DNA of 64,000 nucleotides from Halomonas piscis. GTDB taxonomy: Bacteria > Pseudomonadota > Gammaproteobacteria > Pseudomonadales > Halomonadaceae. Positions 35,670-43,454 of this stretch are shown piece after piece. Under the pieces are notes generated by a model. It was not told the DNA's origin, ran no database searches, and saw only the letters and a program-made list of their open reading frames with translations. The stretch is taken from the NCBI RefSeq assembly GCF_031886125.1, contig NZ_CP119391.1:2666001-2730000 (forward strand), in the 5' to 3' direction. A program made the position numbers and the translations under genes. How positions within the stretch are numbered: the stretch's first letter is position 1; each line of letters begins with the position of its first letter.

Positions 35670-36611
35670 CTACGCCGTGGTCGCCCGCTTTTCCCACACC
35701 TCGATCGCCGCGGCGAGGTCTTCAAGCGAGGCGCCCACCGACTTGAACAGGGTGATGGCCTCGGGGCCGCTGCGCCCCTCTCTGCTGCCCCGCAGCAGCT
35801 CGGCCAGCTCGCCGCGAATGTCGCCAAAGGCAAAACCGCCCTCGTCGACGGCCTGGAGGATATCTCCGGCCTCTCCCTGCGCGCCGGCGTAGGTGTCGAC
35901 AAACACTTCGCTGCGGGCCAGGCAGTCGGCGTCGGTCTCGCGCATGTTCGGGCGAAACGCGCCGATCAGGTCAAGGTGCGTCCCCGGGGTCAGCCACTGG
36001 CCGTGAATCAGCGGCCGGGTGGAAAGCGTCACGCAGCTGATCACGTCGGCGTCGGCGCAGGCCGCCTGCAGATCGGTGACCGCCTCGGTAGCAAAGCGAT
36101 CGGCGTACTCGGCAGCGAGCCGCCTAGCCTTGTCGGGGCTGCGGCCCCAGATGCGCACCCGGCGGATCGGGCGCACCGCGGCGTGGGCTTCGATGACCAT
36201 GGGCGCCAGCTTGCCGGTGCCTGCCACCAGCAGCGTGTCGGCGTCTTCCCGGGACAGCTCGCGAGCGGCCAGCGCCGAGGCCGCGGCGGTGCGTCGGCGG
36301 GTCAGCTCGCCGCCGTCGATACAGGCCAGCGGGCGCCCGTGCGCGCCCTCGCTGAGCAGATAAACCCCGGCAATCGCCGGCAGCCCGTGGTCGGCATTCT
36401 GGGGAAAGACGTTGACCATCTTGACGCCGATGTAGCCGTCCTGCTCCCAGGCCGGCATCAGCAGCATGGTGGCCTCGCCGTCGGGCCGCTGCACGGCGTG
36501 GTGGTGGCGCGGCGGCGACTCGACGCCGGCGCAAAAGGCCTGCGCCAGACGATCGGTCAGCGCCTTCCAGTCCAGCGCCTCGGCCACCTCGGCCGCCGTG
36601 ATCACGCGCAT
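35670..36611 (-). CDS. ornithine cyclodeaminase / mu-crystallin family protein
   Basis: A 313-residue NAD(P)-dependent enzyme of the OCD/mu-crystallin family. The N-terminal part contains [27 protein letters not shown] with the substrate Lys, and the Rossmann part has [17 protein letters not shown] and [15 protein letters not shown]. Family reactions include ornithine cyclodeamination, alanine dehydrogenation and reduction of cyclic ketimines. The start at 36611 is behind GGAGGG. It is the last of six co-directional genes with the TRAP transporter, an HDAC-like deacetylase and RidA. The glycine motif GTGKLA (usually GTGxQA) is slightly unusual. Confidence 0.88.
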
Positions 36612-36613
36612 GA

Positions 36614-36970
36614 TCAGCCCTCCGGAAGCGCGGCAACGACCATGATCTCGACCTTCCACTCGGCGTTGGCAAGCCCGGCCTCCACCGCGGCGCGCACCGG
36701 CGGCCGCTCCGGGATGACCCAGGCGTCCCAGGCGCGGTTCATTTCATCGATTTCCGCCATGCTGGTTACCCAGACCTGTGCGGAAATCAGCCGCGTCTTG
36801 TCGGTACCGGCCCTGGCCAGCAGATCGTCAATGCGCGCCAGCACCTGCTCGGTTTGGCCGCGCATATCGGCGGTGGCATCGCTTGGTACCTGGCCCGACA
36901 GATAGACGGTGCCGTTGTGGATGACGTACTTGCTCATGCGTTCGTTGCTGTCGTGGTGGGTCAGGCTCAT
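36614..36970 (-). CDS. RidA-family enamine/imine deaminase-like protein
   Basis: A 118-residue RidA-fold protein. The substrate-carboxylate arginine is retained (Arg93 in PPVRAAVEAGLANAEWKVEI), which in true RidA proteins binds the imine acid; LSGQVPSDATADMRGQTEQVLARIDDLLARAG is the conserved N-terminal region. The start at 36970 follows GGAGG with a 7-base gap. It stops 2 bases before the ornithine cyclodeaminase-like gene, so both act in one operon and probably on the same imine or enamine intermediate. Confidence 0.9.
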   Translation of the reverse strand: MSLTHHDSNERMSKYVIHNGTVYLSGQVPSDATADMRGQTEQVLARIDDLLARAGTDKTRLISAQVWVTSMAEIDEMNRAWDAWVIPERPPVRAAVEAGLANAEWKVEIMVVAALPEG

Positions 36971-37045
36971 GGTGTTCCTCCGTGGTTAGCGACGATGGCA
37001 GTCGTAGAAAAAAATCCTGGCTCAAGGAGACGCCAGGCTTGGCGC

Positions 37046-38080
37046 TCAAGCCACACTGAAGCCGCGCATGACCGCGGTCAAGTTGTGCTTGAGCGCCGCG
37101 GTGGGGTAGCCGCCCTCCTGAACCAGCACCGTCGGCAGCGCCAGCGCCGCCAGCCGCCGGCCAATACGGGCAAAGTCCCCGGTTTCCAGCGCCAGGCCGG
37201 CCAGCGGGTCGTCCTTGTGGGCGTCGAGGCCCAAGGGCACCACCAGGGCTCCCGGCGCAAAGTCGCCCAGGCTCTCGATCAGTCGGTCAAGCGCTGCCAG
37301 AAAGCGCTTCCCGTCGCTTCCCAGGGGCAGCGGCAGATTGACGTTGGCGCCCAGCCCCTCGCCTTCGCCTGTTTCATCGGCGCCGCCCCAGAAAAAGGGA
37401 TAGAAGTCGGCGGGGTCGGCGTGCAGCGAGCCGGTCCAGACATCGCCGCGGCGATAGAAGATGTCCTGGGTGCCGTTGCCGTGATGCAGGTCCACATCGA
37501 GAATCGCCACGCGGTCGAAACGCTCGCGCAGCACCGCGGCGGCCAGGGCCGAGTTGTTGAGAAAGCAGAAGCCGCCGGCCCGCTCCGGCCCGGCGTGATG
37601 TCCCGGCGGGCGGCACAGCGCATAGGCGCTGGGCTCACCGCCGAGCACCGACTCGGCGGCGGCCTGGGCGGTCGCGGCGCTGGCCAGGATGCCCGCATGG
37701 CTGTCCGCGCCGAGCGGGCAGGCCATATCGTGCAGGTGCCAGCCGGCCTGCCCGATCGGGTGGCGCGGATAGTGGGTACCGCCGCCGCAGGGGTGGACGT
37801 TGGGCACCACGGTTTCGGCGGCGTTCGGCAGCGCCTGCCAGCGGGCATGGATGGTCTCGAGAAAATCGAGATAGCGCGGGCTATGAACATGTCCCAGACG
37901 CTCGCGTAGCCGGCGGGTATCGACCGCGTCGGGCGCGGTAGTTGTCAGCCCCAGCGCCGTCAGCCCGCGGGTCAGCAGCTCGGCGCGCAGCGGGCGCTCC
38001 GGTGACGCAGCGGGCCGCCCCTGCAGCCAGAAGCTTCCGGGGTCGTGGCGCTGCTGGTCGGGATGATAGAAAACCTGCAT
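37046..38080 (-). CDS. acetylpolyamine amidohydrolase / HDAC-family deacetylase
   Basis: A 344-residue zinc amidohydrolase of the arginase-deacetylase fold. The start MQVFYHPDQQRHDP and length fit bacterial acetylpolyamine amidohydrolases. The active site is intact: tandem His161-His162 in RPPGHHAG, zinc ligands Asp197 and His199 in ILDVDLHHGNGT, the third ligand Asp in LGLDAHKDDPLAG, and GGYP near the end with the transition-state Tyr. It should release acetate from an N-acetylated amine. It lies between dctM and the RidA gene, which suggests a small imported substrate rather than a protein. Confidence 0.9.
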   Translation of the reverse strand: MQVFYHPDQQRHDPGSFWLQGRPAASPERPLRAELLTRGLTALGLTTTAPDAVDTRRLRERLGHVHSPRYLDFLETIHARWQALPNAAETVVPNVHPCGGGTHYPRHPIGQAGWHLHDMACPLGADSHAGILASAATAQAAAESVLGGEPSAYALCRPPGHHAGPERAGGFCFLNNSALAAAVLRERFDRVAILDVDLHHGNGTQDIFYRRGDVWTGSLHADPADFYPFFWGGADETGEGEGLGANVNLPLPLGSDGKRFLAALDRLIESLGDFAPGALVVPLGLDAHKDDPLAGLALETGDFARIGRRLAALALPTVLVQEGGYPTAALKHNLTAVMRGFSVA

Positions 38081-38124
38081 ACGACGTTACCTCGATAGAT
38101 CGACTTTGGGTTCGCAAGCCCTGT

Positions 38125-39402
38125 TCACTTGAGCAGCGAGGGTATCCAGGTGGACAGCGCCGGAAAGGCCACGACCAGCAGGATCACCGCGGCAAAGGCG
38201 ACATAGAACGGCAGCGAAGCAATGATCGCCCGCTCAAAGGGCACGTCGGCGATACGCGCCGCCGTCATCAGCGTCATCCCCACCGGCGGCGTGACGTTGG
38301 AGATATTGAGCACCACGATCATCAGGATGGCAAAATGCAGCGGGTCCACGCCCAGCTGCACCATCGCCGGCACCAGCACCGGCGCCACCACCACCAGCGC
38401 CGGCAAGACGTCCATCACGGTGCCGATCAGGATCAGCAGCGCACACACCAGCAATAGCTGAAGGAACATGGAGTCGCTCAGGGTAGTAATCAGCCCCGCC
38501 GCGTCCCGGGCGATGCCCGAACGGGTCACGAACCAGCCGAGCACCGCCGACGTCGCCAGCAGAAAAAACACCACCCCCGAGAAGCGCACGGTCACCACCA
38601 GCGCCTGCCAGATCTTCTGCCAGGTCAGGTTGCGGTAGAACACCACGCCGATGATGATGGCATAGACCGCCGCGAAGCCCGACGCCTCGGTGATGGTGGT
38701 CAGCCCCGAAAGGATGCCGCCAAGAATGATCAGCGGCACGATCATCGCCGGCAGCGCCACCAGAAAGGCGCCCCAGGCCACCCTGAGCGGCGTCGGTGCC
38801 TGCTTGGGGTAGCCGCGCCTCCAGGCCAGGAAAAAGCTCACCGCCAGCAGCGCCGCGGCCATCAGCAGGCCGGGGACAATACCGCCGGCAAACAGGTCGA
38901 TCACCGAAATATCGCGCAGCAGGGTGGCATAGATCACCATCACCACGCTGGGCGGTATGATCGGCCCGATGATCGATGAACAGGCGGTAATCGCGGCGGC
39001 GTACTCGGCGTCGTAGCCCTGCTTTTTCATCTCGGGGATCATGATCTTGCCGATGGCCACGGTATCGGTAATCGCGGCCCCGGTCAGCCCGGCGAAAAAC
39101 ACCGATACCGAGATGTTGACGTGGGCCAGCGCACCGCGCACCTGACCGAAAAGCGCATTGTTGAAGGCGATCAGCTTCTGGGTCAGCCCGCCCTGGTTCA
39201 TCAGCTCGGCGGTGAAAATGAAATAGGGCACGGCGATGAGCATGAATCCCGAAACGCCGGAAAACATGCGGTCGGCGATGATGCCGAGCATGCGCTCACC
39301 GCCCATGGCAAAGCCGCCGGCCAGGCCGGAGAGAGCCATCACCACGGCCACCGGCGTACCAATCAGCAACAGCAGCACAAAGGCAACAATGGCAGGCATC
39401 AT
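38125..39402 (-). CDS. dctM: TRAP transporter large membrane subunit (DctM)
   Basis: A 425-residue inner-membrane protein with about twelve hydrophobic segments. LIAVPYFIFTAELMNQGG, GLTGAAITDTVAIGKIMIPEMKKQGYDAEYAAAITACSSIIGPIIPPSVVMVIYA and NISNVTPPVGMTLMTAA are the DctM hallmarks. It couples sodium entry to uptake of the substrate delivered by DctP. Its ATG overlaps the dctQ stop by 4 bases. The symbol names the family; the substrate is not known. Confidence 0.95.
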   Translation of the reverse strand: MMPAIVAFVLLLLIGTPVAVVMALSGLAGGFAMGGERMLGIIADRMFSGVSGFMLIAVPYFIFTAELMNQGGLTQKLIAFNNALFGQVRGALAHVNISVSVFFAGLTGAAITDTVAIGKIMIPEMKKQGYDAEYAAAITACSSIIGPIIPPSVVMVIYATLLRDISVIDLFAGGIVPGLLMAAALLAVSFFLAWRRGYPKQAPTPLRVAWGAFLVALPAMIVPLIILGGILSGLTTITEASGFAAVYAIIIGVVFYRNLTWQKIWQALVVTVRFSGVVFFLLATSAVLGWFVTRSGIARDAAGLITTLSDSMFLQLLLVCALLILIGTVMDVLPALVVVAPVLVPAMVQLGVDPLHFAILMIVVLNISNVTPPVGMTLMTAARIADVPFERAIIASLPFYVAFAAVILLVVAFPALSTWIPSLLK

Positions 39403-39944
39403 GAGCGCTTCTCCCCGTTGTCGGCATCGATGAGCCCTTCGATAACCGACTCGTCATCGATGAAATGTTCGAGCAAGGCGAAGCCCTGCACCAGGTGCAG
39501 CAGGATGATGGCGCCGCTCAGGGGCAGCACCACGGCGGTAAACTTGGCGGAGACCTGTATCTGGTCGGACACCATGTAGACCTGTCGGGCGCTTTCGAAA
39601 TAGCCCCAGCCGTACCAGAGCAGCAGCGCGCCGAACAGCGCGATCACCCCAAGGCAGAGGGCCGCGGCCAGTTTCAACAGGGCCCGGGGCAGAGCTCGAA
39701 CCAAAAGCGTCATGGCCACGTGCTCGCCGTAGCGCAGCGAAATGGTCATGGAGAGAAAACCGATCCAGGGCAGAAACAGCCGCGCCAGGGAGTAGGTCCA
39801 GCTCAGGCTGCTGCCGGTTATCAGCTTGTAGGTGAAGGCCGTGAAGGAGATACCCAGCATGACCAGTACGCAGGCCACGCAGAGCACGATCGCCGCCTGG
39901 TTGACCCAGTCGCTCAGGCGGCGGAGAGGCTTGAGAAAGCGCAT
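39399..39944 (-). CDS. dctQ: TRAP transporter small membrane subunit (DctQ)
   Basis: A 181-residue protein with four membrane segments typical of DctQ: an N-terminal helix (AAIVLCVACVLVMLGISFTAFTYKL), LFLPWIGFLSMTISLRYGEHVAMTLL and two more toward the C-terminus. It forms the membrane complex with DctM. It lies 70 bases after dctP. Confidence 0.93.
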   Translation of the reverse strand: MRFLKPLRRLSDWVNQAAIVLCVACVLVMLGISFTAFTYKLITGSSLSWTYSLARLFLPWIGFLSMTISLRYGEHVAMTLLVRALPRALLKLAAALCLGVIALFGALLLWYGWGYFESARQVYMVSDQIQVSAKFTAVVLPLSGAIILLHLVQGFALLEHFIDDESVIEGLIDADNGEKRS

Positions 39945-40014
39945 CGATGAACCCCGCAGGCTTCAGAAGCCGGCCGGCCATGCCGGCCGACGTTGACGGA
40001 GAAACGACAAGGCG

Positions 40015-41082
40015 TCACCGGCCGTAGTTGTCCATGTCCGACTGCTTGACCTCCTCTCCGACGCGATCGACCTCGTTGAGGAAGGCGTCGACCTTCTCGG
40101 CCTCGAGGCCGAAGTCGTTGACGATCCAGTCCTTCCACGCCGGGCGCGCGATCTCGGCCATGCGGTCGCGCTCCTCGGCGGGCATGATGTAGCATTCCTT
40201 GAAGATCTCGCAGGACTCCTGCCACCCGGCCGTGGCCAGCGCCGCGGACATGCCGTGGCCAATCTCGATGGCCTCGCGCGCCGAGGTAATGATCGCTTCC
40301 TGCTGCTCCTCGGTAAGGCTCTGGTACCAGTTCTCGCTGACCAGCCAGGCGGCGCTGTTATAGACGTGGCCGGTCAGGGTGGTGTAGTCGGTCACCTCGT
40401 CGAAGTTGAAGGTGGTGTTGAGCACCGTCGCGTTGAACTGGCCGTCGGCCAGGCCGGTTTCCAGCGCCGTGATCACCTCGCCCCAGGGCAGCGGCGTGGC
40501 GGAGGCCCCCAGCGCCTTCATGATGGCGACGTGCCCGGGATTCTCCTCGGTGCGAATATTGAGCCCTTCGAGATCCTCCACCGTCTTGATCGGACGCTCG
40601 TTGTTGGTAAAGGCCACAAAGCCGCCGCCGTCGTCGAAGGTGCCCAGGTAGCGCATGTTGGTTTCCTCGACGGTGCCGGCCATCAGGTCGGCAAACCAGT
40701 CGCCGTCGAGAAAGGCCCAGGCCTGGCGCCAGTTATCGAAAATAAAAGGCGCGGTCATCAGCTGGTAGTCGTCGTAGTAGGACGACATGGCGCCGGTGGT
40801 AATGATGGTCGACTGCAGGGTGCGGCCGCCCTGAACCTCCTTGGCGGTATCGACCTCCGAGCCCAGCTGGCTGTTGCCGAAGATGTTCACCTGGATGGCA
40901 CCGTCGGTACGCGTATCGACCAGGTCCTTGAAGCGTATCAGCGCCGGGTAAATCGAGTTGTTGCTCATGTTTTCGGGCAGGATGGTGGCAATCGCCATTT
41001 CATTGGCTTGTGCCTGGGCGGCGGCCATGGCCAGCGGCAGGGCCGCCAGTGCGGCCATACGCGAATACGTCTTGATGGGCAT
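40015..41082 (-). CDS. dctP: TRAP transporter periplasmic substrate-binding protein (DctP)
   Basis: A 355-residue exported binding protein. The signal peptide is residues 1 to about 26 (ALPLAMAAAQAQA-NE). The family helix-sheet core includes VNIFGNSQLGSEVDTAKEVQGG, and the substrate-carboxylate arginine is in LEGLNIRTEENPGH. TRAP binding proteins nearly always bind carboxylates, so the substrate should carry a free carboxyl group. It is the first gene of the dctPQM-deacetylase-RidA-OCD run and is divergent from lplA. Confidence 0.94.
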   Translation of the reverse strand: MPIKTYSRMAALAALPLAMAAAQAQANEMAIATILPENMSNNSIYPALIRFKDLVDTRTDGAIQVNIFGNSQLGSEVDTAKEVQGGRTLQSTIITTGAMSSYYDDYQLMTAPFIFDNWRQAWAFLDGDWFADLMAGTVEETNMRYLGTFDDGGGFVAFTNNERPIKTVEDLEGLNIRTEENPGHVAIMKALGASATPLPWGEVITALETGLADGQFNATVLNTTFNFDEVTDYTTLTGHVYNSAAWLVSENWYQSLTEEQQEAIITSAREAIEIGHGMSAALATAGWQESCEIFKECYIMPAEERDRMAEIARPAWKDWIVNDFGLEAEKVDAFLNEVDRVGEEVKQSDMDNYGR

Positions 41083-42427: not shown

Positions 42428-43454
42428 CCTGATTACGCATAAAAGTCAGCCATCTTCAGGAACCGGTACGGCATCGGCGGCGTTCTCGCTGCCACCGTCA
42501 GAAAGCGCGGGATCATGGCCTTGAGGTCATAGCGCCGATTGAACCGATACTCGAACTCGGCCAGGTAGCGTGGGGCATGCTGCCCGCGGATGGCATGGTA
42601 AGTGCCGGTGATCGCGTTCTTGACGTTGCCCAGCAGGGTGTTGACCCAGTTGAACTCGGGGTTCTCCACACTGGCACGCCCACCCCCGGTGATGTGGCAG
42701 TCATGGACGTAGAGGGGCGTGTCGAAGGCTCGGAAACACCCGAGACCGTCGCTGATGACCTGGCTCCCGGGGGCAATGGCCTGTTCGGCGTAGCGACGGA
42801 TCTCGGTGAGGGTGAAGCCGCTCACACGGCGAAGCTGAACCCGCAGTGGGTGGCCTTCCTCATCGGTTTGTACGGCCGCCACGAACGGGAACTTGTGCTC
42901 GGCGCCGCGCCCGCGCTTTCCCGGCCGTTCACCGCCCAGGTAGGCATCATCCAGCTCGATACGTCCGGAGAGCCGCTCTCCCTGGTTGCGCTCGTGCATG
43001 ACCTGCAGCAGCTTGTGCTTGAGCTTCCAGGCGGTGTTGTAGCTGACGCCGAGCTCCCGGGACAGTTGCAGCGCCGAGATGCCGCTCTTGCGCTGGGTCA
43101 GCAGATAGATGGCCAGAAACCAGGTGGTCAACGGCAGGTGCGTGGCATGGAAGATGGTCCCGGCGGTCAGCGAGGTCTGATGATGGCAGCGATGGCACTG
43201 GTAGAGCCCCCGCGACAGCCGGCAGCCCGTGGTGTTGCCACAGTCGGGGCAGACGAACCCCCTGGGCCAGCGATGCTGGAAGAGGGCTGCCTGGCATTGC
43301 GCTTCCGTGCCGTACTGCTCGAGGAAGGCCGGCAGCGACAGGCCGGGCTGGAACTGGATAGGATTGCGTGCCATGACGTCGGCTCCTCTACTGGATATAA
43401 CCTCAGTATAGGACAAGCTGGCGGGATGGTGGCTGACCAACATGAGTAATCAGG
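42428..43454 (-). mobile_element. IS1595-family insertion sequence, 1027 bp, apparently intact
   Basis: The ends read inward CCTGATTACgCAT and CCTGATTACtCAT, with GTCAGCCA continuing the match a few bases further in. The element is flanked by an exact 8-bp direct repeat, TAAGCGTT, at 42420-42427 and 43455-43462; an 8-bp duplication is the norm for IS1595. It carries one complete transposase and lies between the convergent ends of lplA and purL. Confidence 0.92.
42433..43374 (-). CDS. IS1595-family transposase
   Basis: A 313-residue transposase. The N-terminal zinc ribbon (CPDCGNTTGC...YQCHRCHHQTSLTAGTIF) is followed by a helix-turn-helix (GISALQLSRELGVSYNTAWKLKHKLLQVM) and the ISXO2-like DDE-type core starting GRIELDDAYLGGERPGKRGRG. 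The core includes QVISDGLGCFRAF and ends in a FEYRFNRRYDL motif. The start at 43374 has AGAGGAG upstream. The frame is intact. Confidence 0.93.
   Translation of the reverse strand: MARNPIQFQPGLSLPAFLEQYGTEAQCQAALFQHRWPRGFVCPDCGNTTGCRLSRGLYQCHRCHHQTSLTAGTIFHATHLPLTTWFLAIYLLTQRKSGISALQLSRELGVSYNTAWKLKHKLLQVMHERNQGERLSGRIELDDAYLGGERPGKRGRGAEHKFPFVAAVQTDEEGHPLRVQLRRVSGFTLTEIRRYAEQAIAPGSQVISDGLGCFRAFDTPLYVHDCHITGGGRASVENPEFNWVNTLLGNVKNAITGTYHAIRGQHAPRYLAEFEYRFNRRYDLKAMIPRFLTVAARTPPMPYRFLKMADFYA

What the first reader, a model, noticed from the sequence alone, without database searches (positions are those of the whole stretch)
35670..41082. TRAP transporter linked to an HDAC-family deacetylase, RidA and an ornithine cyclodeaminase-like enzyme: candidate undescribed catabolic route
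Six co-directional, tightly spaced genes encode import of a carboxylate (DctPQM), zinc-dependent removal of an acetyl group from an amine (active site intact), imine/enamine clean-up (RidA with its carboxylate-binding Arg93) and reduction or cyclodeamination (OCD/mu-crystallin family). A single substrate fits all steps: an N-acetylated diamino acid, such as N-delta-acetylornithine, N-acetyl-diaminobutyrate or N-epsilon-acetyl-lysine. Deacetylation would be followed by cyclic imine formation, handled by RidA and the reductase. Several such compounds are osmolytes in halophiles, so scavenging them would make sense. No aminotransferase, ectoine hydrolase (DoeA) or DoeB-type deacetylase is present, so it is not the known ectoine route.
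Basis: partly seen in the sequence, partly recalled or inferred. Interest (0 to 1): 0.75.

Follow-up and report, generated by a model that had tools for sequence, protein, structure and literature searches.

The report
Acetylated diamino acid scavenging operon
A gene set shared by many salt-loving bacteria of the Halomonas group appears to import an acetylated amino acid, strip the acetyl group and turn the rest into a proline-like compound, by a route that seems not to have been described.

Summary
The six genes are real, co-directional and tightly spaced and are a variant of a conserved cluster. The HDAC-family gene (HDAC1) is in 45 of 97 genomes searched (own included) and all 45 also carry the OCD-family gene. 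The usual Halomonas form, in 27 of 43 mapped loci, is AraC-RidA-OCD-DctPQM-HDAC1-HDAC2-branched-chain-type aminotransferase. The window's order recurs in other genera of the family, and in one locus of another family, there with a D-amino-acid dehydrogenase. The 'ornithine cyclodeaminase' is not one: it lacks Glu56 and Asp228 and scores as a pyrroline-/piperideine-2-carboxylate reductase. The Rid protein resembles an imine-hydrolysing Rid2 member (PMC5619798). The deacetylase is nearest to acetylpolyamine hydrolases. Best reading: TRAP uptake of an omega-N-acetylated diamino acid, alpha-amino removal by an enzyme linked in relatives but absent here, deacetylation, spontaneous ring closure, reduction to proline or pipecolate. 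The substrate is unproven. Ten literature searches (open-licence papers only; named in the report) listed no paper describing this gene combination.

The parts
40015..41082 (-). dctP: TRAP solute-binding protein, 355 aa, first gene of the unit
   Evidence: PF03480 197 bits; nearest PDB chain 4n8g at 146 bits; R177 invariant in all 10 sequences aligned, taken as the usual carboxylate-binding Arg (recalled)
39399..39944 (-). dctQ: TRAP small permease
   Evidence: PF04290 66.8 bits; 60-79% identical where found in relatives
38125..39402 (-). dctM: TRAP large permease
   Evidence: PF06808 367 bits; TIGR00786 366 bits against cut-off 268
37046..38080 (-). HDAC1: histone-deacetylase-fold, acetylpolyamine-amidohydrolase-like Zn amidohydrolase, 344 aa
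36614..36970 (-). Rid protein, nearest PDB chain PSPTO_0102 (Rid2 subfamily); imine deaminase candidate
   Evidence: PF01042 86.7 bits; 9bk1 97.5 bits; subfamily of PSPTO_0102 from PMC5619798
35670..36614 (-). OCD-fold ketimine (delta1-pyrroline-2-/delta1-piperideine-2-carboxylate) reductase
   Evidence: NCBIfam NF004793 416.9 bits against cut-off 322; cyclodeaminase residues Glu56 and Asp228 absent

Best explanation
The unit scavenges an omega-N-acetylated diamino acid, most likely N-delta-acetylornithine or N-epsilon-acetyl-lysine, as carbon and nitrogen source. Steps: (1) DctPQM imports the zwitterion, its carboxylate held by the DctP arginine. (2) The alpha-amino group is removed to give the 2-oxo-omega-acetamido acid: in relatives by the linked branched-chain-type aminotransferase, suited to a neutral side chain, or by the linked D-amino-acid dehydrogenase; in the window species by an unlinked enzyme. 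The Rid protein hydrolyses the alpha-imine released. (3) HDAC1 removes the acetyl group. (4) The free omega-amine closes on the 2-oxo group without an enzyme, giving delta1-pyrroline-2- or delta1-piperideine-2-carboxylate. (5) The OCD-fold reductase reduces this to L-proline or L-pipecolate. Shown here: gene identities, conservation and the loss of cyclodeaminase residues. Inferred: substrate, order of steps 2 and 3, and product. Proline is slightly favoured over pipecolate, as nothing in this genome reaches the cut-off of the pipecolate oxidase model.
For: OCD is above the curated cut-off of the Pyr2C/Pip2C reductase family and lacks Glu56 and Asp228. All 45 HDAC1-positive genomes of 97 have OCD; RidA and OCD lie in 42 of 43 HDAC1 loci. 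Enzymes that make 2-oxo acids or alpha-imines recur: the aminotransferase in 39 of 43; DadA in 5 of 21 further loci mapped, L007, L195, L196, L201 and L204, above the family cut-off in the two scored, L007 and L204. L204, of another family, is AraC-DctPQM-HDAC1-RidA-OCD-DadA, the window order plus AraC and DadA. Transporters differ while the enzymes stay: TRAP; an ABC system with an SBP_bac_8 binding protein in L004, that protein being 58% identical to one in the same stretch as an HDAC1 homologue in Roseovarius L031; a polar amino-acid type ABC system in L203 and, by eye, L199-L202. HDAC1 homologues without OCD sit with an aminotransferase, CoA-transferase, deacylase and thiolase (L203), or with an aminotransferase and a beta-keto-acid cleavage enzyme above its cut-off (L031), as expected for an N-acetylated (beta-)diamino acid. 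PSPTO_0102 and PA5083 hydrolyse amino-acid-derived imines including iminoarginine (PMC5619798, passages). Best match to the pipecolate oxidase model in this genome is 192 bits against a cut-off of 600.
Against: No substrate or product was measured. The window locus has no alpha-amino-removing enzyme, and its genome has no close copy of the linked aminotransferase (one hit, 33% identity, E 1e-16). DadA is in none of the 43 Halomonas loci. The HisC-like aminotransferase near most clusters is in 58 of 97 genomes, 8 of them without OCD, so it is no evidence for the pathway. DctP's ligand cannot be read from sequence and its model was poor (pLDDT 39.3). OCD occurs without HDAC1 in L175, L176, L177, L179 and L180, and without RidA in L175, L177, L180 and L195, so the reductase has uses without deacetylation and Rid is not indispensable. 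TRAP is absent from 11 of 43 loci. HDAC1 stands without OCD in L126, L198, L199, L200, L202 and L203. Tested relatives of HDAC1 take acetylpolyamines (PMC4784309, PMC11532494). The pipecolate oxidase search had no positive control: none of its 14 control genomes passed the cut-off.
Confidence: 0.5

Rival explanations
1. Acetylpolyamine-derived compounds: the unit imports an omega-acetamido acid from polyamine breakdown (4-acetamidobutyrate, 5-acetamidovalerate) and HDAC1 deacetylates it to GABA or 5-aminovalerate; Rid and OCD serve a second amino acid.
For: Nearest solved structures are acetylpolyamine hydrolases; P. aeruginosa PA0321 and PA1409 allow use of acetylputrescine and acetylcadaverine (PMC4784309, passages); a second HDAC1 copy (L126) lies beside an aldehyde dehydrogenase most like succinate-semialdehyde dehydrogenase (488 bits, below that model's cut-off of 730); the L004 transporter looks PotD-like by eye.
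Against: It leaves the tightly linked ketimine reductase, Rid protein, aminotransferase and, elsewhere, DadA unexplained; TRAP import suggests a carboxylate, not a polyamine (recalled).
Confidence: 0.2
2. D-amino-acid or cyclic-imine salvage: Rid and OCD handle ketimines from D-ornithine, D-lysine or D-proline made by DadA; the HDACs remove assorted acyl groups, giving a broad amide-hydrolysing unit.
For: AraC-RidA-OCD occurs without either HDAC in L179, and AraC-OCD in L175; DadA in 5 of 21 loci; HDAC2 resembles propanil and dimethoate hydrolases.
Against: In the 97 genomes HDAC1 is never without OCD, which argues for one pathway; DadA is in none of the 43 Halomonas loci.
Confidence: 0.2
3. 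Regulatory role: HDAC1 deacetylates proteins and is merely co-transcribed.
For: Bacterial classical deacylases, PsApaH included, can deacetylate lysine in peptides and proteins (PMC11532494, sections 9 and 16).
Against: Its nearest structures are small-molecule acetylpolyamine hydrolases, and in most loci mapped it stands with transport and amino-acid genes (exceptions L198 and, for the cluster, L126).
Confidence: 0.05

Closest known systems
Acetylpolyamine amidohydrolases (3men of Burkholderia pseudomallei; Marinobacter subterrani msAPAH; Pseudomonas PsApaH 9gkz)
   Different: The position of PsApaH His106/MrApaH Glu106 is Ile109; PIS is PLA; own invariant loop residues (H96, Y104, H107, Q111, W114, H115) and FYPFFWG; operon with TRAP and ketimine reductase
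Pyr2C/Pip2C reductases of the OCD superfamily (NF004793; 7rbp and 6t3e the nearest chains; trans-3-hydroxyproline pathway)
   Same: Scores above the curated cut-off; keeps the Lys69 and Arg112 equivalents
   Different: No hydroxyproline dehydratase among the six genes; the ketimine would arise after deacetylation
Ornithine cyclodeaminase (P. putida 1u7h/1x7d)
   Same: Family and fold; a rid gene also stands beside ocd on an Agrobacterium plasmid
   Different: Catalytic Glu56 and Asp228 missing
Ectoine degradation DoeABCD
   Same: Deacetylation of an acetylated diamino acid in Halomonas (PMC3187862, passages)
   Different: Neither DoeA nor a DoeB-type deacetylase among the six genes
Plant lysine-to-pipecolate route (ALD1 aminotransferase, SARD4 reductase; recalled, only listings seen)
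   Same: alpha-transamination, ring closure, reduction by an OCD-fold enzyme
   Different: Plant biosynthesis, no acetyl group

Membership tests
Pyr2C/Pip2C reductase (NCBIfam NF004793) | score above curated cut-off | tested here: met
   416.9 bits against 322
Pyr2C/Pip2C reductase (NCBIfam NF004793) | NAD(P)H-dependent reduction of Pyr2C/Pip2C | not testable with these tools
   needs purified enzyme
Ornithine cyclodeaminase | Glu56 and Asp228 (P. putida numbering; PMC3840593, passages) | tested here: not met
   Leu51 and Phe220 in the window protein; Leu and Phe also in the 4 homologues aligned; Glu and Asp in the Agrobacterium OCD
Ornithine cyclodeaminase | carboxylate-binding Lys69 and Arg112 | tested here: met
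   K65 and R108
Cluster 4 acetylpolyamine amidohydrolase | Zn site, RPP and EGGY motifs | tested here: met
   R157 P158 P159; E322 to Y325; D197, H199, D286
Cluster 4 acetylpolyamine amidohydrolase | Glu/His106 polyamine contact and PIS motif (PMC11532494) | tested here: inconclusive
   Ile109 and PLA here; L060, a 43% relative from Pseudomonas of untested activity, also has a hydrophobic residue at that column, so the feature may not discriminate
Cluster 4 acetylpolyamine amidohydrolase | activity on acetylpolyamines | not testable with these tools
   needs assay
Rid2 imine deaminase | conserved Arg and Glu (PMC4433059, passages) | tested here: met
   R93 and E108 aligned with PSPTO_0102
Rid2 imine deaminase | subfamily placement by phylogeny | not tested
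   only nearest PDB chains used: PSPTO_0102 first, PA5083 fourth
TRAP transporter | DctP, DctQ and DctM together | tested here: met
Ectoine degradation (Doe) | ectoine hydrolase and DoeB-type deacetylase in the locus | tested here: not met
   none among the six genes; the rest of the genome was not searched for them

The most novel reading that the evidence does not exclude
An undescribed, widespread catabolic route for acetylated lysine, beta-lysine and ornithine, compounds that other microbes accumulate against salt or heat. A shared HDAC-type deacetylase is plugged into alternative modules: 2-oxo acid to ketimine to proline or pipecolate in Halomonas and kin; beta-keto acid cleavage by CoA-transferase and thiolase in other Gammaproteobacteria; or a beta-keto-acid cleavage enzyme in Alphaproteobacteria. 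Transporters are interchangeable (TRAP, two kinds of ABC system).
Probability: 0.35. Interest if true: 0.65.

Novelty: new variant of a known kind. Interest (0 to 1): 0.5.

Why it matters
Bacterial 'histone deacetylases' are usually read as protein or polyamine deacetylases. A conserved cluster that ties one to a carboxylate importer and a ketimine reductase would give the family a defined catabolic job, explain how acetylated osmolytes could be recycled in saline habitats, and correct 'ornithine cyclodeaminase' annotations. It yields assays with simple substrates.

Tried and rejected
Cyclodeamination of ornithine: rejected on residues. The HisC-like aminotransferase beside most clusters (37 of 43 loci) as the missing step: it is in 58 of 97 genomes, that is 58 of the 61 of the window's genus, 8 of them without OCD, so adjacency is not evidence. 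Polyamine-contact residue as a substrate test: not discriminating. DctP ligand from structure: model too poor, not searched further. Promoter scan: no sigma-70-like site; 6 terminator-like sites against 3.7 (sd 1.9) in shuffles. A regulator for the window unit: no AraC orthologue in the genome (best E 4e-8). Viral carriage of OCD: no relative in viral contigs. Rid association outside the Halomonas group is weak by count: RidA-like ORFs of 50 bits or more near 5 of 71 loci (L024, L028, L030, L031, L077). The 71 are the 80 loci less L004-L010, L042 and Marinobacter L011; my gene caller misses genes in high-GC DNA. L198 has HDAC1 with neither Rid nor OCD, and L126 likewise. The DctP search of relatives did not complete, so DctP co-occurrence was not counted.
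Full report
Observation. The six reading frames are present on the minus strand at the stated coordinates with short gaps or overlaps (sequence). Pfam and NCBIfam identify a TRAP transporter (DctPQM), a histone-deacetylase-fold protein (HDAC1), a Rid protein and an OCD-fold protein. Downstream on the same strand lies a DEAD/ResIII helicase; upstream and divergent is a lipoate-protein ligase, then an IS1595-type transposase.

Conservation. Among 97 genomes (the window's own, 60 of its genus, 36 others of the order), HDAC1 (E<=1e-90) is in 45 and OCD (E<=1e-80) in 52; every HDAC1-positive genome has OCD. I mapped 43 loci from 42 of the 44 other HDAC1-positive genomes by tblastn: AraC, RidA and OCD in 42, DctPQM in 32, HDAC2 in 39, branched-chain-type aminotransferase in 39, DadA in none. 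27 show AraC-RidA-OCD-DctPQM-HDAC1-HDAC2-aminotransferase. L126, a second copy in one genome, has HDAC1 alone; L155's HDAC genes are in pieces. Of the seven genomes with OCD but no HDAC1 hit, one is a contig end that breaks off inside an HDAC1 match (L181) and one is visibly frameshifted with HDAC1 pieces (L178). The other five carry OCD with AraC (L175), with AraC and RidA (L179), with RidA, HDAC2 and aminotransferase (L176), with HDAC2 and aminotransferase (L177), or at the end of what looks like a Liv-type ABC operon (L180). So OCD, usually with Rid and AraC, is the core and deacetylation looks added to it.

Wider sampling. Across 390 genomes of the order, 17 (9 of 142 genera) have HDAC1 at E<=1e-130. 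I fetched 12 of those 17; the other five are the window genome and G005, G019, G037, G040, already mapped. In L193, L194, L196 and L197 (same family), DctPQM-HDAC1-RidA-OCD stands in the window's order, followed by HDAC2, then (after DadA in L196) the aminotransferase; L195 is the same with DadA but without a detected RidA. L204, of another family, is AraC-DctPQM-HDAC1-RidA-OCD-DadA. L204's and L007's DadA exceed the D-amino-acid dehydrogenase cut-off. L199, L200, L202 and L203 have HDAC1-RidA without OCD in the stretch. In L203 seven neighbours were scored: a lysine/arginine/ornithine-type binding protein (below that model's cut-off), its ATPase, an aminotransferase (below cut-off of the nearest model, class III by eye), both CoA-transferase subunits, an ArgE/DapE-type deacylase and a thiolase, the last four above cut-off; L200-L202 look alike in part by eye. 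L201 combines such genes with HDAC1-RidA-OCD-DadA. L198 has HDAC1 alone.

Other taxa. In one search's loci, Roseovarius L031 has an aminotransferase, a beta-keto-acid cleavage enzyme above its cut-off (494 of 430 bits), a protein I read by eye as GNAT (no NCBIfam hit), HDAC, an FAD oxidoreductase and RidA; Hoeflea L030 looks alike by eye. Tritonibacter L024 has a different TRAP, HDAC, RidA and a DadA-like protein below the family cut-off. The binding proteins of Roseovarius L031 and Modicisalibacter muralis L004 (HDAC1 and OCD, no TRAP found) are 58% identical, linking an alpha and a gamma cluster to one imported substrate class.

Mechanism. Removing acetyl from a diamino acid gives a diamino acid, not an imine. 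The linked aminotransferase or DadA supplies the alpha step in relatives, and an acetylated side chain would suit a branched-chain-type aminotransferase (inference). After deacetylation, 2-oxo-5-aminovalerate or 2-oxo-6-aminohexanoate closes to Pyr2C or Pip2C (established chemistry, recalled), the substrate of the OCD-fold reductase. The window genome has no close copy of the linked aminotransferase. It has a 73% orthologue of the HisC-like aminotransferase, but that gene is general to the genus. No pipecolate oxidase passes its cut-off (best 192 of 600 bits; no positive control among the 14 control genomes), which mildly favours proline as product. [quoted passage not shown]

Literature. Searches (open-licence PMC only; others found no paper at all) listed no paper describing this gene combination, judged from titles, abstract starts and the passages read. 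PMC3187862 (passages) covers the Doe ectoine route. Subscription papers were not searchable.

Verdict. Real, conserved and probably catabolic; a new combination of known families. Confidence 0.5 in the acetylated-diamino-acid route; lower for any single substrate.

Noticed in passing
window 42433-43443 (-): IS1595/ISXO2-like transposase gene upstream of the cluster, beyond the lipoate ligase. The window cluster differs in order from the usual Halomonas one and lies elsewhere: in L175-L177 and L179 the OCD locus is near a queA-like gene (by eye).
   Followed up: partly
L010 11036-12142 and 39 of 43 Halomonas loci: A second HDAC-family protein (HDAC2), nearest to propanil and dimethoate hydrolases, follows HDAC1 in most clusters; its substrate is unclear.
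   Followed up: partly
L116 12617-19999 and similar loci: A convergent operon beside the cluster: HisC-like aminotransferase (37 of 43 loci), GlcD-like FAD oxidase (30 of 43) and a Dpp/Opp-like peptide ABC transporter.
   Followed up: partly
L126: Second HDAC1 copy in one Halomonas genome beside an ArgE/DapE-type deacylase, a ThDP enzyme and an aldehyde dehydrogenase nearest to succinate-semialdehyde dehydrogenase.
   Followed up: partly
L180 4780-10444: OCD orthologue at the end of what looks by eye like a Liv-type branched-chain amino-acid ABC operon, without Rid or HDAC.
   Followed up: no
L160 4555-8942 and 13632-16509: On a Phaeobacter inhibens plasmid the OCD homologue (48% identical) follows a molybdopterin-dependent oxidoreductase, with a TRAP transporter about 5 kb away.
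   Followed up: no
L116, L134, L135, L141: A second, upstream rid gene before AraC, giving two Rid genes per cluster.
   Followed up: no
L178: Cluster genes appear split into fragments throughout the stretch, which looks like frameshift-rich sequence.
   Followed up: no
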